DNA from: Nodosilinea sp. WJT8-NPBG4
GTDB taxonomy: Bacteria; Cyanobacteriota; Cyanobacteriia; Phormidesmidales; Phormidesmidaceae
NCBI GenBank assembly: GCA_019359285.1
Contig: JAHHHQ010000058.1
Span: forward strand, 1 to 64,000
Reading direction: 5' to 3'
DNA: 64,000 bases
Shown here: one piece after another, positions 40,393 through 50,073 of the stretch
Position numbering within the stretch: the first letter of the stretch is position 1
How the letters are laid out: each line of letters opens with the position of its first letter
Position numbers and translations under genes: made by a program
Notes under the pieces: model-generated
Databases searched by the model: none
The model's input: the letters and a program-made list of their open reading frames with translations, nothing else
Told to the model about the DNA's origin: nothing

Positions 40393-42609
40393 ATGGCATT
40401 GCTCGAAAGTGCGATCGGCGGAATTGCTGTAACGGTGATAGAGACCACCCTTAAAGCTGGTGGAGCTGTGGCTGGCCAAATCAAAGGAGCCTACAACGAA
40501 ACTCAGGCCAAGCAAAAAGCCCTTGAGGCAGCGCAAAACTATGTGCAGCGCTACGACCAGCGCCACTGCCAGGTCAAGGTCATGCCAGGGCTGATGAAGG
40601 AGCCGCTGCCCTTGGAAGACATCTACACCGCTGTCAAACTGCTAGACGACAGGAGCATCCAATACTTTGCCGCTGTGGATGATTTGGAAGCCACCTACCG
40701 CGCCAAGGGTAGACGCAGTTTTGGATTTAGCGAATCTCCACGACAAGACGGCATTCAAGTCGCCAATAATGAGCAATACCTGATGGTGCTGGGTGGCCCT
40801 GGCATTGGCAAATCGACCTTTCTACGAAAAATTGGGCTAGAGGCGCTGCGCAAGAATGGGCAGATTCAGCGCGGCTGCATTCCGGTACTCATTGAGCTAA
40901 AGGAACTGCGGGATGAAGCCATTGACCTCAAGCAAAAGATCGCCGCTGAGTTTGCCACCTGTGGTTTTCCAGAGGCAGAAGCCTTTGCCGGAGCCTCATT
41001 AGCTCAAGGCAAGCTGCTAGTGCTGCTGGATGGGCTAGACGAAGTGCCCACCCAAAACCTCAACCGCGTAGTGGAGCACATCGAAACTTTTGTCGATGCT
41101 CACAGCAATAATGCCTTTGTGGCCTCTTGCCGCATTGCTGCCTATCGCGGTAGCCACGGTATATGCTTTAAGTGCTTTACCGATGTCACCCTAGCAGAGT
41201 TTGACGACGAGCAAATTGAACAATTTATTCGCCGCTGGTTTCGCTCGGCCCTCGACTTAGAGAGCGGCACTGCCGATAAATATTGGGAGCTGCTGCAAAA
41301 AAACGAAAACAAAGCCACCAAAGAGCTAGCCCAAACCCCTCTGCTGCTGACCTTTTTGTGCCTAGTTTATGACCGGCAGCAAACGCTTCCTACCCAGCGC
41401 AGCGCTCTCTACGGCAAGGCTCTAGATATTTTGCTGTCTGAGTGGTCCGCCCAAAAGCGCCTAGAGCAAGACCCCATTTACGAGGGCTTTCACCCAGACT
41501 TAGAAAAGGTGCTGCTGGCCCAAATTGCTTATAACAGCTTTGAGCAAGACCAGCTTTTCTTTCTCAAAGACGACATTACCTACCGCATTGGCAAGTTTTT
41601 GGAAGATACCTTAAATGTTTCCAAACACCTTGATGGGGCCTCTGTTCTACGGGCCATTGAGCGCCAACAGGGTGTTCTGGTCGAGCGAGCAACTGATATC
41701 TACTCGTTTTCTCACCTAACATTGCAAGAATATCTCACCGCATTCCATATCAAGGAAGAGGGGTTAGATACAGAACTGATTGTCTGCCACTTAGCCGATG
41801 AACGCTGGCGAGAGGTGTTTTTGCTGGTGACAGGGTTACTAGGCAATAAAGCCATTGAGTTCTTAACGGCCATCGAAGTAACGGCTCGTATCTACATCGA
41901 GACGTATCCAAAACTGATCGCGTTAATTCAATGGGCTAATACCAGCACTGTAGATTCAAGAGGACAATATAAACCTGTCGTCAAACGAGCGACTGCTATC
42001 GCCATCTACAGCGCCATCTACAGCGCCAGCGCCATGGACATCGATATTTACAGCGCCCTTGACAGCGCCAGCGCCAGTGCCAGTGCTATCTACAGCGCCA
42101 TCGATACCGCCAGCGCCAGCGCCATCGACAGCGCTATCTACAGCGCCAGCGCCAGCGCCATTACCATCAACATCGCCATCGACATCGCCAGAGCTAGTGA
42201 CACTGACATCGCCAGAGCTAGTGACATAGACATCGCCATCGCCAGCGCCATCGACAGCGCTAGTGACATCGACATTGACAGCGCCAGCGCCAGCATTTTT
42301 GTTGCAATATTTAGCAATCCCAAATTTGCAGAACTACCGAATCAGCTAGAGCATATGGCTCAAACCATGCCTGACAGAGATGCACCAGGTAGTGCCTGGC
42401 AAAATTGGGCTGATGAGCTAGAAACCCTGTGGCTAGACGCCCTTGACATTACCCAAGAAAATCTGACCTTTGACAGGGCAGAAGCAGAAGCCCTGCAAAA
42501 TTATCTCTACGCCATAGAGCTTTTGCTGCGGTGCAAAGCTTCCGCTGTGCGCATACCCAAACAAGCCTGGGCCGAGCTGGAAGATCGCTTACTCACTTAC
42601 CCCAGCTAA
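40393..42609 (+). CDS. NACHT-domain STAND NTPase with (DI/AS)n low-complexity region
   Basis: 738 residues. Walker A VLGGPGIGKSTFLRKI (about 132-147), Walker B GKLLVLLDGLDEVPTQNLNR (206-225), sensor VASCRIAAYRG, and NACHT-associated helices ending FSHLTLQEYLTAFHI. Residues about 534-634 are an extraordinary repeat of Ala-Ser, Ile-Asp and Tyr-Ser-Ala dipeptide-like units (for example DIARASDTDIARASDIDIAI). After it comes a C-terminal helical domain (PNQLEHMAQTMPDRDAPGSA...). NACHT proteins of bacteria act as regulated switches, several in phage defence. The N-terminal ~110 residues (TLKAGGAVAGQIKGAYNETQ...) are the likely effector or signalling part, with no enzymatic motif visible. Stands alone. 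Confidence 0.88.
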   Translation: MALLESAIGGIAVTVIETTLKAGGAVAGQIKGAYNETQAKQKALEAAQNYVQRYDQRHCQVKVMPGLMKEPLPLEDIYTAVKLLDDRSIQYFAAVDDLEATYRAKGRRSFGFSESPRQDGIQVANNEQYLMVLGGPGIGKSTFLRKIGLEALRKNGQIQRGCIPVLIELKELRDEAIDLKQKIAAEFATCGFPEAEAFAGASLAQGKLLVLLDGLDEVPTQNLNRVVEHIETFVDAHSNNAFVASCRIAAYRGSHGICFKCFTDVTLAEFDDEQIEQFIRRWFRSALDLESGTADKYWELLQKNENKATKELAQTPLLLTFLCLVYDRQQTLPTQRSALYGKALDILLSEWSAQKRLEQDPIYEGFHPDLEKVLLAQIAYNSFEQDQLFFLKDDITYRIGKFLEDTLNVSKHLDGASVLRAIERQQGVLVERATDIYSFSHLTLQEYLTAFHIKEEGLDTELIVCHLADERWREVFLLVTGLLGNKAIEFLTAIEVTARIYIETYPKLIALIQWANTSTVDSRGQYKPVVKRATAIAIYSAIYSASAMDIDIYSALDSASASASAIYSAIDTASASAIDSAIYSASASAITINIAIDIARASDTDIARASDIDIAIASAIDSASDIDIDSASASIFVAIFSNPKFAELPNQLEHMAQTMPDRDAPGSAWQNWADELETLWLDALDITQENLTFDRAEAEALQNYLYAIELLLRCKASAVRIPKQAWAELEDRLLTYPS
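41992..42295 (+). repeat. Hexanucleotide-like coding repeat in the NACHT gene
   Basis: About 300 bp composed largely of GCCAGC, GACATC, GCCATC and TACAGC units, in frame with the NACHT protein. Unit order is irregular, but each block of six encodes Ala-Ser, Asp-Ile, Ala-Ile or Tyr-Ser. Confidence 0.85.
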
Positions 42610-46345: not shown

Positions 46346-46559
46346 CCCAAAATTACCCGCACGGGTAATTAGCAATGCCCTTCAGCAGCGCCTAGGATTT
46401 TGTCATGAAATGCTTACAGGGAAACGCATCATTCCCTGCTTGAGGGCCGCTTCAGCCAAGCCTTTCTGCATCTACAGCCCTAGCCCACCCCAAAAGCTTT
46501 TATCACCTCTCCCCTCAACAAAAGCCTCGGGGAACTTGCCCACCCAAGGAGATTTTTCC

Positions 46560-47258
46560 ATGGCCGATCTCGTCGTCAACTACTCCCTCGCCAGCGCCAC
46601 CACCCTCGCCAACCCCGACGGCACCCTGCCCGCCATTCTCACTAACTCCACCGAAGCCGCCGGGCCAGGCGCAACCACCCTTGGCACCCTCGACAAAGCC
46701 CTCCACTTCGACACCGGGGCCTCCATTCAAACCACCCTGTCGCCAGAGGCCATTACCCCCAACCGCTTCTGCATTCGCGTCGCCTTTTCGGCCAACGGGC
46801 CAGTCACCACCCGGCAAAACCTGGTCGAGTCGACTGCCCTACCCTTTGCGATGTTTTTAGAGCCCGGCAGCGCCGCCGATCGCTTCAATCTGGTCGTTGC
46901 CGTGGCCAATAGCCAGGTCGACTGGGCGATCGCCCACACCACCAACCGCGTTGCCCTCACCCTCAACACCTGGTATGTCGTCAGCCTCGTCTACGATCTC
47001 AACACCCTCGCCCTCATAGTCGATGGCACCGTCCACGCCGTCACCGCCTTCCCCAACGGCGGCCTCCAGGAAGGCACTGGCGACAAACTGTGGATTGGCG
47101 CCTGGGTCGATGGCCTGCGCTGGTCCTTTAAGGGCGACATTGCCGCCGTGCAGGTCTACAGCGCTCGAAACCACCCTCGACGCCAAGCGCTCTACCCCCG
47201 AGTGGTTTCTCACCCACAAACACAACGCGATTCGGCCTACGCTCAACCTCGGCAATAA
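46560..47258 (+). CDS. LamG-type lectin domain, N-terminal part of a frameshifted LamG-LGFP protein
   Basis: Start ATG 46560 with AAGGAG 9 nt upstream; no signal peptide (ADLVVNYSLASATTLANPDG). Residues 1-200 form a concanavalin-like LamG fold: LDKALHFDTGASIQTTLSPE, LNTWYVVSLVYDLNTLALIV, KLWIGAWVDGLRWSFKGDIA, AVQVYSA. Homology ends at VQVYSA (about 47163); the remaining 30 codons to the stop at 47258 are out of frame. The downstream frame takes over at once with LETTLDAKRSTPEW. One base too many, or two missing, would restore a single ~1170-residue product. Either a real disruption or a sequencing error. Confidence 0.75.
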   Translation: MADLVVNYSLASATTLANPDGTLPAILTNSTEAAGPGATTLGTLDKALHFDTGASIQTTLSPEAITPNRFCIRVAFSANGPVTTRQNLVESTALPFAMFLEPGSAADRFNLVVAVANSQVDWAIAHTTNRVALTLNTWYVVSLVYDLNTLALIVDGTVHAVTAFPNGGLQEGTGDKLWIGAWVDGLRWSFKGDIAAVQVYSARNHPRRQALYPRVVSHPQTQRDSAYAQPRQ

Positions 47259-50073
47259 AGTCTCAGACTTTTACTTCGACAGTGCCATCTCCAGCTACGT
47301 GCAGCCCTTCGAAGGTGGCCTGATTTCCTACACCGCCACCCACGGCGTCGCCTTTGAAATGCACGGCTCTATCCACGCTCTCTACCAGGGCGACTCAAAC
47401 CTGCGCCGCAACCTCGGGGCTCCCGCCAGCGACGAAATCAACGGTCGCCGGGCCGGGTCGCGCAAGAGTGTCTTTGCCCAGGGCTGCATTTACTGGTCGC
47501 CCCAAACTGGTGCAGTGCCCGTGCTCGGTCGCCTCTACCTCGACTACGAAATGCTGGGCGAAGGGGCCAGTGCGATCGGTCTGCCCACCACCGCCCAAAC
47601 CACCGTGCCTGGTGGCGTTATGCAGCAGTTTCAGGGGGGCCGCATGTATTACCGCAGCGGGGCCTCCAATGCCTTTGAGGTGCACGGCTCCATTCTCGGC
47701 AAGTACGACGCCACCTGGGGCGTCACCCGCTGGGGCTTCCCCGTCAGCCACGAGAGCGACGTGCGCCGCGACAGTCAGGTGATCGGCAAAGTTAGCCACT
47801 TTGAGAGCTGCACGATTTATTGGAGCGGGGCCACCGGCGCCCACATTATCTATGGCGACATTCGCCGCAAATACCTCGAAGCGGGCGGTCCCCAGGGGGC
47901 GTTGGGCTTCCCCACTTCGTCAGAAGAAGACATCCCCGGTGTGTCTGGCCCCGCCCGCTACAACACCTTTCAGCAGGGCAGCATTCTCTGGTTTAACGGC
48001 CAGCTCCATGTCTGCTACCCCTTCCGGTTCTTCATTGGCCGGGTCGACACCAAAGAAGAAGACCGCGACTTTCTCGATGTCGATGGCCAAAACGACCTCT
48101 ACTGCCGCATTGCCATCACCGTGAATGGCCACCGCGTTTATGACAAGAAACTGCCCGAGGGCGACAAGCACTTCAGCAGCGCCAACATCAAAGACGTTAA
48201 CTTCAACGTGCCCTACGCGGTGCTGCCCGGCGACCCCAACCTCAACGTGCAGTTCCAGGTCGAAATTTGGGAGTGCGACTCGGGCAACCTGTTCGGCGGC
48301 GACGATGACTTGCTGGGCCGCTTCACCAAAGACCTCAACATTCGCAACGCCTGGGGCCTGCGCGACAACGCCAACGGCATCTTTAGGGCCAGCAACTTTG
48401 GCCCTTGGATGAACTTTATGGACTGGTCGATTAAGCCCCAGCTGGGGGCCAATACGCCTCTCGACTTCTTCTCGGCCATCAACCGGGGCACCCCCACCGT
48501 CGATTTTCGAGAATACGCTGCCGCCTTTGGCGATGTCGACCCCGACTGGGAGCTTGACTTTGGCCTAATCGACGACGGCCTCAAGGCGCTGTTCTACGAG
48601 CTGGTGGTGAAGGGCGTCGCTGCCGGAGGCAACTGCTTTGGCATGGCCACCGAGGCCATCTACGCCTACAAAGACATGAGCCGCCTCAGCCGCCCCCTCA
48701 GCCGCTTTAGCAACTGGGCCGAGGTCGAGAACGACTTTAACGTGCGCCACGCTTATCAGGTGGGGGCCGATGCGGTCTGGTGGTTTGTGGGCCAGTTCCT
48801 CAGCGGCAAAACCCACAACCCAGTCAGCGTCTTTAACGACACCTGGGATGCCCATAACCGGGGCCTCAACCCTGTGATTTGCCTATCGCAAAACTATGAC
48901 TTTAGCGGTGCACCCCACTGCATCACCCCGATCGCTTGGCGCAACACCGGCAGTGAAATGCAGATCGATGTGTTTGACCCCAACTCGGGCAGCAGCATCC
49001 GGCGCATTGTCATCGACCCGGCTCACAACACCTTCCGCTACGAGAATGGCCGGGTTTACGAAGGCGGTGAATGGAGCGGGGGCCGCCTGCACTACATGCC
49101 CTTCTCGGTGCTCAACCACCGCCAGCGGACACCCGTTTGGGATGCGATTATGCTGCTGCTGGGCGGCGTGGTGCTGATTTTGGGCGATAGCGCCGAAACC
49201 CTCAGCCTCACCGACGAAAACGGCAATAACCTTAACGCCTTCAAAGACACCTCCCGCAAAGTCGAGAACCTGTCCGGCAAGTTTGTGCCCTTCCCTGGCT
49301 TCTTCGGCAACAACCCGATTAAAGGCGAGCTGCTGTTGGGTATGCGACCAAAGCGATCGCGCTTGATTCCTCTCGACAACGTGCTGCTCGATTCGGTGCA
49401 GCTCAACAACGTCAGCAACCTGGGCCGCAACTTGGGTACGACGCTGTCTACTAACGTTAACCCCAACCTCAATGTCGACCTCGGAGCGGCTCGATTCCGC
49501 GATCGCGCCGTGCTTGACGCCATCCAGCGCGTGCAGCAGCCCACCGACCTCGACAGCTGGGTGCACACCCTGCAAGGGGTTAACGCTGGCCGGTTGCAGT
49601 ATTACTTAAAGCGTCCGCTTCAGGCGCTGCAAGTGGGGGGTGCCATTCGGCCCAGCGATCGCATCACCATGACGGCCGCCCGTCTGCAAACCGTCGATAA
49701 CGAGTTCAAAGTTGTGGCCCAAAACGCCAACACTTACACGCTATCGGCAGTGTCTAAACTTGGGGCCGGCCGCGACTTCGTCAAAGTCACCGTCGAGAAC
49801 GTGCCCGCCGAGGCCAACCAAGAGCTGAAGATCAACCTCCAGCCTGGCCTCAACACGATGGATGTAGTCTCTAACGGTGCCCCCTTTAACGCCACCGTCA
49901 CCTACGAAGGGCGCGTCAACGACAAACCCCTCCGCAGTCAATACACCGTCCCCATGGCCCAAGGCATGCGGCTCACCGCCCCCAACCTCGAAGACGTAGG
50001 CACCCTCAAGGTCAGCGGCATCGAGCGCATCCTGGGCGAAGTGCGCGCTACCCAGCTAATTCAGGGGCAATAG
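47164..50073 (+). CDS. LGFP-repeat protein with cysteine-peptidase-like domain (continuation of the LamG gene)
   Basis: About 969 residues in the frame that continues the LamG part. LGFP-type repeats come first: LRRNLGAPASDEI, SAIGLPTTAQTTVPGGVMQQ, TRWGFPVSHESDVRRD and GALGFPTSSEEDIPG, each with a QGxxYW/ILWF strand; these are cell-wall-associated repeats best known from actinobacteria. A beta-rich C2-like region follows. Then comes GGNCFGMATEAIYAYKDM, GAPHCITPIAW and DVFDPNSG, a plausible Cys-His-Asp set of a papain-like fold (inference). A hydrophobic stretch VWDAIMLLLGGVVLILG lies beyond, and the C-terminus is Asn-rich and beta-rich. No signal peptide, so cell location is unclear. Confidence 0.75.
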   Translation, partial: LETTLDAKRSTPEWFLTHKHNAIRPTLNLGNKVSDFYFDSAISSYVQPFEGGLISYTATHGVAFEMHGSIHALYQGDSNLRRNLGAPASDEINGRRAGSRKSVFAQGCIYWSPQTGAVPVLGRLYLDYEMLGEGASAIGLPTTAQTTVPGGVMQQFQGGRMYYRSGASNAFEVHGSILGKYDATWGVTRWGFPVSHESDVRRDSQVIGKVSHFESCTIYWSGATGAHIIYGDIRRKYLEAGGPQGALGFPTSSEEDIPGVSGPARYNTFQQGSILWFNGQLHVCYPFRFFIGRVDTKEEDRDFLDVDGQNDLYCRIAITVNGHRVYDKKLPEGDKHFSSANIKDVNFNVPYAVLPGDPNLNVQFQVEIWECDSGNLFGGDDDLLGRFTKDLNIRNAWGLRDNANGIFRASNFGPWMNFMDWSIKPQLGANTPLDFFSAINRGTPTVDFREYAAAFGDVDPDWELDFGLIDDGLKALFYELVVKGVAAGGNCFGMATEAIYAYKDMSRLSRPLSRFSNWAEVENDFNVRHAYQVGADAVWWFVGQFLSGKTHNPVSVFNDTWDAHNRGLNPVICLSQNYDFSGAPHCITPIAWRNTGSEMQIDVFDPNSGSSIRRIVIDPAHNTFRYENGRVYEGGEWSGGRLHYMPFSVLNHRQRTPVWDAIMLLLGGVVLILGDSAETLSLTDENGNNLNAFKDTSRKVENLSGKFVPFPGFFGNNPIKGELLLGMRPKRSRLIPLDNVLLDSVQLNNVSNLGRNLGTTLSTNVNPNLNVDLGAARFRDRAVLDAIQRVQQPTDLDSWVHTLQGVNAGRLQYYLKRPLQALQVGGAIRPSDRITMTAARLQTVDNEFKVVAQNANTYTLSAVSKLGAGRDFVKVTVENVPAEANQELKINLQPGLNTMDVVSNGAPFNATVTYEGRVNDKPLRSQYTVPMAQGMRLTAPNLEDVGTLKVSGIERILGEVRATQLIQGQ

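What the first reader, a model, noticed from the sequence alone, without database searches (positions are those of the whole stretch)
46560..50073. LamG-LGFP-cysteine-peptidase-like protein lacking a signal peptide
A LamG lectin domain, at least four LGFP wall-binding repeats, and a GNCFGM...PHCITPIAW...FDPNSG region with a plausible Cys-His-Asp set make an unusual architecture for a cyanobacterium, with no export signal and an internal hydrophobic stretch. It could be a contact-dependent or injected effector, or be acquired from actinobacteria.
Basis: partly seen in the sequence, partly recalled or inferred. Interest (0 to 1): 0.6.

Follow-up and report, generated by a model that had tools for sequence, protein, structure and literature searches.

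The report
Broken copy of glycan-binding cysteine peptidase
This cyanobacterial gene is a recently broken copy of a rare, uncatalogued protein that joins sugar- and wall-binding domains to a papain-like enzyme core, has no standard export signal, and occurs intact in bacteria of four phyla.

Summary
A 14-base deletion at 47163/47164 puts the LamG part (46560-47258) and the LGFP/Cys part (in frame to 50073) in different frames. Six relatives in the same genus carry the sequence intact, with LamG fused to the rest (1,176-1,181 aa). Intact homologues with the same order (LamG, LGFP repeats, C2-like stretch, Cys domain, beta tail) occur in other cyanobacteria, a Betaproteobacteria MAG, Gilvibacter (Bacteroidota) and a Nitriliruptorales MAG (Actinomycetota). 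None has a signal peptide, and an upstream in-frame stop excludes a hidden one in several. The Cys domain has no Pfam or NCBIfam family. Cys, His and Asp-Pro-Asn are conserved, and an AlphaFold model (pLDDT 74) resembles papain-like peptidases (staphopain, ComA, cathepsins; best Z 6.9). A wider set of exported relatives shares the motifs (profile-profile E 2e-14). Injection by a contractile system is not supported: Gilvibacter has no sheath gene, and no injection gene lies beside any copy (nearest about 30 kb). An actinobacterial donor is not supported by the tree. Best reading: a leaderless, glycan-binding, papain-like cysteine hydrolase, damaged in this genome. Function and export route are untested.

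The parts
46546..46551 (+). ribosome-binding-like AAGGAG before the real start
   Evidence: conserved in all seven aligned same-genus copies
46560..47258 (+). first half-gene: LamG (ConA-like lectin) ORF from ATG 46560; ends at TAA because of the frameshift
   Evidence: Pfam PF13385 over 46734-47162, E 9e-10; ORF table
47163..47164 (+). junction of a 14-base deletion (frameshift) relative to six intact relatives
   Evidence: DNA alignment
47164..50073 (+). second half-gene, true reading frame; the mechanical ORF runs 47023-50073, but 47023-47163 is out-of-frame LamG sequence
   Evidence: homology to relatives begins at ORF residue 47-48
47260..48000 (+). LGFP repeats (motifs at 47413, 47575, 47731, 47902)
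   Evidence: PF08310, 5 stretches, E 2.7e-45; solved relative C. glutamicum PS1 6swz, E 1e-26
48013..48430 (+). C2-like stretch (W-x-D-x-G...GDDDLLG motif)
   Evidence: motif only; conserved across homologues; no Pfam hit, low-confidence model
48457..49119 (+). papain-like Cys domain, no Pfam or NCBIfam family
   Evidence: model mb40f67bf269e pLDDT 74; VIA-align hits dominated by papain-like proteases
48634..48636 (+). putative catalytic Cys (GNC-F-G)
   Evidence: invariant in 16 core members, Ser in one distant member
48916..48918 (+). putative catalytic His (P-H-C-I)
   Evidence: invariant in 16 core members, Tyr in one distant member
48976..48978 (+). putative catalytic Asp (D-P-N)
   Evidence: 90% or more conserved
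49129..49185 (+). conserved hydrophobic stretch TPVWDAIMLLLGGVVLILG
   Evidence: aligns with strand-like, less hydrophobic sequence in distant members; low pLDDT
49555..50070 (+). C-terminal beta-rich region
   Evidence: strands in the full-length model of the intact Tildeniella copy, residues 1005-1176

Best explanation
Window 46560-50073 is a recently inactivated copy of a conserved, leaderless, multidomain papain-like cysteine hydrolase. The intact protein reads LamG lectin, LGFP repeats, C2-like stretch, papain-like domain, beta tail. The lectin and LGFP parts would hold the protein on a glycan or cell-wall surface, and the Cys-His-Asp domain would cut a peptide or amide bond there (inferred). 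It would reach that surface by a non-Sec route or by release on lysis (inferred). Here a 14-base deletion separates the lectin part from the enzyme part, so the full protein cannot be made. Shown: the frameshift, the intact relatives, the absent leader, motif conservation and a papain-like model. Inferred: catalysis, substrate, site of action.
For: 14-base deletion against six intact relatives. Homologues with the same architecture in four phyla. Core Cys and His invariant and Asp/Asn nearly so in 16 members. Profile-profile match to a wider family that includes exported proteins with the motifs aligned (E 2e-14). Model topology and about 39 of the 50 VIA-align rows being papain-like, the top eight included, best Z 6.9. 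Excess of non-synonymous changes unique to the window copy (14 non-syn to 32 syn against 34 to 178 in the others, Fisher one-sided p 0.02; LamG alone 5:4 against 8:32, p 0.04).
Against: Best Z is under 8, which the tool calls middling, and Foldseek itself had no significant hit. No activity data. The deletion could be an assembly fault, since no reads were seen. The relaxed-constraint signal is weak and counts few changes. Without a leader, the extracellular role of the binding domains is unproven.
Confidence: 0.65

Rival explanations
1. It is cargo of a contractile injection system (CIS): the leaderless protein is loaded and fired into or out of cells.
For: No leader. Among 11 intact LamG-type carriers, 10 have a sheath match and 10 a tube match; this genome, with the broken copy, has neither. 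One carrier, G018, has a full CIS cluster about 30 kb from the gene.
Against: Gilvibacter, an intact carrier, has no sheath, and its lone tube-like gene sits beside a glycosyl hydrolase with no CIS genes around it. G008 has no tube gene. About half of the sampled cyanobacteria have these genes anyway (31 and 30 of 58). No CIS gene lies beside any copy. The LamG-less relatives G058, G073 and G967 lack both.
Confidence: 0.12
2. The protein works inside the cell, for example as a self-directed or maturation protease, and the binding domains bind internal glycans or proteins.
For: No signal peptide in any homologue, including diderm and monoderm hosts; no linked exporter.
Against: LamG and LGFP are otherwise domains of surface and wall proteins (established knowledge; PMC2447325 describes LGFP in cell-surface proteins). 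Distant relatives are exported: T9SS tail, lipoprotein or PG-binding types.
Confidence: 0.2
3. The Cys domain is a non-catalytic papain-like fold and the protein is an adhesin.
For: One distant cyanobacterial member (L037) has Ser and Tyr in place of Cys and His.
Against: Cys and His are invariant in all 16 core members across phyla.
Confidence: 0.1
4. The two ORFs are two separate working genes, or joined by a programmed frameshift, and not a broken gene.
For: Both frames stay open, and the downstream part is still up to 96% identical to relatives.
Against: All six same-genus relatives have a single fused frame; the deletion is unique to this copy; changes look mildly relaxed.
Confidence: 0.08

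Closest known systems
Staphopain and other clan CA (papain-like) cysteine peptidases (1cv8, 1pxv, cathepsins)
   Same: Order of Cys, His, Asp/Asn; Cys at the start of the core helix; VIA-align Z up to 6.9 over 133 residues
   Different: No sequence similarity found (8% identity); embedded in a LamG/LGFP protein; extra helices between Cys and His
C39 bacteriocin-processing peptidases (ComA peptidase domain 5xe9, PCAT1)
   Same: Cys...His...Asp-Pro order and VIA-align Z 5.9 over 121 residues
   Different: No transporter fused or adjacent; no Pfam C39 hit
LGFP-repeat proteins of Corynebacterium (PS1/mycoloyltransferase A, 6sx4, 6swz)
   Same: LGFP repeats, E 1e-26
   Different: No esterase domain; no signal peptide; host has no mycolic-acid wall
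Uncatalogued exported papain-like relatives (L053 lipoprotein type, L042 T9SS type, L037 PG-binding type, Rhodococcus plasmid L105)
   Same: G-[NHS]-C-x-G and H-x-x-x-P-Y...Y-D-x-N-x-P motifs; profile-profile E 2e-14
   Different: Several carry export signals or sorting domains, and they lack LGFP/LamG

Membership tests
Papain-like (clan CA) cysteine peptidases | Cys, His, Asp/Asn in that order, conserved | tested here: met
Papain-like (clan CA) cysteine peptidases | papain-like fold | tested here: inconclusive
   model pLDDT 74; most top VIA-align rows papain-like, best Z 6.9, below the tool's caution line of 8
Papain-like (clan CA) cysteine peptidases | thiol-dependent activity | not testable with these tools
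   needs an enzyme assay
Peptidase family C39 | match to the family profile | tested here: not met
   no Pfam hit for any of 12 members at E up to 10 except an unrelated one
LGFP-repeat proteins | LGFP repeats over the curated cut-off | tested here: met
   153 bits against 22, 5 stretches
Laminin_G_3 / ConA-like lectin domain | profile match over cut-off | tested here: met
   39.3 bits against 27.6, on the first half-gene only
CIS cargo | encoded in or beside a CIS cluster | tested here: not met
   neighbourhoods of 15 loci clustered and adjacent genes of five scanned; G018 has a cluster only about 30 kb away
CIS cargo | host genome has a CIS | tested here: not met
   absent in this genome and in Gilvibacter, present in most other carriers
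Sec-exported surface protein | N-terminal signal peptide | tested here: not met
   no hydrophobic N-terminus in any of 10 full-length homologues; G008, CCT1 and Gilvibacter have an in-frame stop 4-5 codons upstream of the start

The most novel reading that the evidence does not exclude
A leaderless, glycan-binding papain-like cysteine protease is delivered by contractile injection systems in bacteria of several phyla, and loss of the injection system in this strain went with loss of its cargo gene.
Probability: 0.08. Interest if true: 0.7.

Novelty: new variant of a known kind. Interest (0 to 1): 0.4.

Why it matters
It points to a papain-like domain family missing from Pfam and NCBIfam that spans at least four phyla, with exported members and one leaderless LGFP branch. 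How a leaderless protein with surface-binding domains is used is a testable open question. For the window itself, the main lesson is that the gene is broken.

Tried and rejected
Plasmid and phage collections: no relative of the Cys domain itself. Viral contigs: none in four scans. PADLOC: no hit. PHROGs: only the LGFP repeats of endolysins (E 4.5e-29) and weak LamG-like matches. PDB by sequence: only LGFP proteins with a real match. Foldseek with the full-length model returned LGFP proteins and then a long list of clostridial neurotoxin binding domains at TM about 0.14 normalised by query and rmsd about 20; I read this as the shared jelly-roll lectin fold of LamG in a poor multidomain model (pLDDT 59) and draw nothing from it. 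Foldseek with the Cys domain alone had no hit below E 0.001. The Bacteroidota weak hits at E about 1e-4 to 1e-3 matching model positions 34-99 look like PurL false matches: L044 reads as PurL, and the others share size and position but were not read. CIS cargo and an actinobacterial origin were tested and not supported. No base rate of CIS genes outside cyanobacteria was measured.

Full report
The observation. The domains are there: LamG passes its Pfam cut-off (39.3 bits against 27.6) and the LGFP repeats strongly so (153 against 22). The Cys, His and Asp-Pro-Asn motifs lie at 48628, 48913 and 48973. But the LamG frame ends at 47258, and the LGFP/Cys frame is a different one, so the span 46560-50073 is not a single ORF.

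Why. In 58 related genomes, six of the same genus carry a close copy (92-96% identical over query residues 47-1016) with LamG in the same frame. A DNA alignment shows that the window copy lacks 14 bases at 47163/47164 and that all six relatives have them. Changes unique to the window copy lean to non-synonymous (14 to 32, against 34 to 178 in the others; Fisher one-sided p 0.02; LamG alone p 0.04). This fits a recent loss of constraint but rests on few changes. I could not see reads, so an assembly fault is not excluded.

The intact protein. Full-length homologues of 1,172-1,192 aa share the same order of parts in Nodosilinea and Tildeniella, two other cyanobacteria (G034; G153, whose first part lies outside the stretch fetched), a Betaproteobacteria MAG, Gilvibacter sediminis and a Nitriliruptorales MAG. 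A LamG-less branch with LGFP repeats occurs in three cyanobacteria and one actinobacterial genome, the last on a contig cut at its start. The family is rare: 12 of 389 cyanobacterial genomes, one of them a weak match, and one to four of about 400 in each of three other phyla once the PurL-like matches are set aside. The tree puts the Nodosilinea copies next to the Betaproteobacteria MAG, and the other cyanobacterial LamG-type copies elsewhere, with the Nitriliruptorales MAG at modest support (82/90). Transfer between phyla is likely, but an actinobacterial donor is not shown; the MAG could also be mis-binned.

No leader. None of the ten full-length homologues has a hydrophobic N-terminus. In G008, CCT1 and Gilvibacter an in-frame stop lies four or five codons before the start, so a missed signal peptide is excluded there.

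The Cys domain. No Pfam or NCBIfam family matches it. Across 16 core members Cys and His are invariant and Asp and Asn nearly so. A second set of proteins, among them ones with a lipoprotein-type leader, a T9SS tail or PG-binding domains, matches by profile comparison (98.3%, E 2e-14) with the motifs aligned. The predicted structure (pLDDT 74, 21 sequences) has Cys at the start of a long helix, His at the start of a strand and Asp at the end of the next one, as papain-like enzymes do. VIA-align ranks staphopain first (Z 6.9, rmsd 3.8, 133 aligned), with Mac-1/IdeC, a papain-like toxin, the ComA C39 domain, UfSP and cathepsins following. Z is middling, but about 39 of the 50 rows are this fold. 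I could not measure distances because coordinates are not released.

The hydrophobic stretch (49129-49185) is conserved, with a mean hydropathy near 1.8-2.0. In distant members its place is taken by less hydrophobic, strand-like sequence ahead of the T-D-x-x-G motif. I therefore favour a strand of the following beta domain over a membrane helix; this is inference.

Injection. Of 11 intact LamG-type carriers, 10 have a contractile sheath gene and 10 a tube gene; this genome has neither. That is suggestive, but half of the sampled cyanobacteria have these genes (31 and 30 of 58), Gilvibacter has no sheath and only a lone tube-like gene, and no copy sits beside injection genes. In G018 the CIS cluster is about 30 kb away. 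I rate this reading unlikely.

Mechanism. Most likely the intact protein anchors on glycan or wall through LamG and LGFP and cleaves a peptide or amide bond with its Cys-His-Asp centre. Its route out of the cytosol is unknown. In this strain the link between anchor and enzyme is cut.

Noticed in passing
L093 (G018 C7 1-19999), 7023-15545: Contractile injection cluster (two sheaths, gp19 tube, CIS_tube with LysM, baseplate hub, PAAR) about 30 kb upstream of the intact orthologue; absent from the window genome.
   Followed up: partly
window 40393-42609: NACHT NTPase with NCH2 tail upstream, in the same cluster as a gene in the same place in two relatives (G018, G021).
   Followed up: no
L037 568-3006: Cyanobacterial relative with PG-binding and SH3 domains whose Cys and His are replaced by Ser and Tyr: probably inactive.
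   Followed up: partly
L053, L105, L042, L043, L052: A wider papain-like family (G-[NHS]-C-x-G ... H-x-x-x-P-Y ... Y-D-x-N-x-P) without Pfam or NCBIfam entry, also on Rhodococcus plasmids.
   Followed up: partly
L063 7638-8312: Gilvibacter gene next to the homologue with a weak match to permuted papain-like Peptidase_C92.
   Followed up: no
L097 7155-9144: Lone gp19-like tube gene beside a glycosyl hydrolase 47 that is split over two ORFs in Gilvibacter.
   Followed up: no
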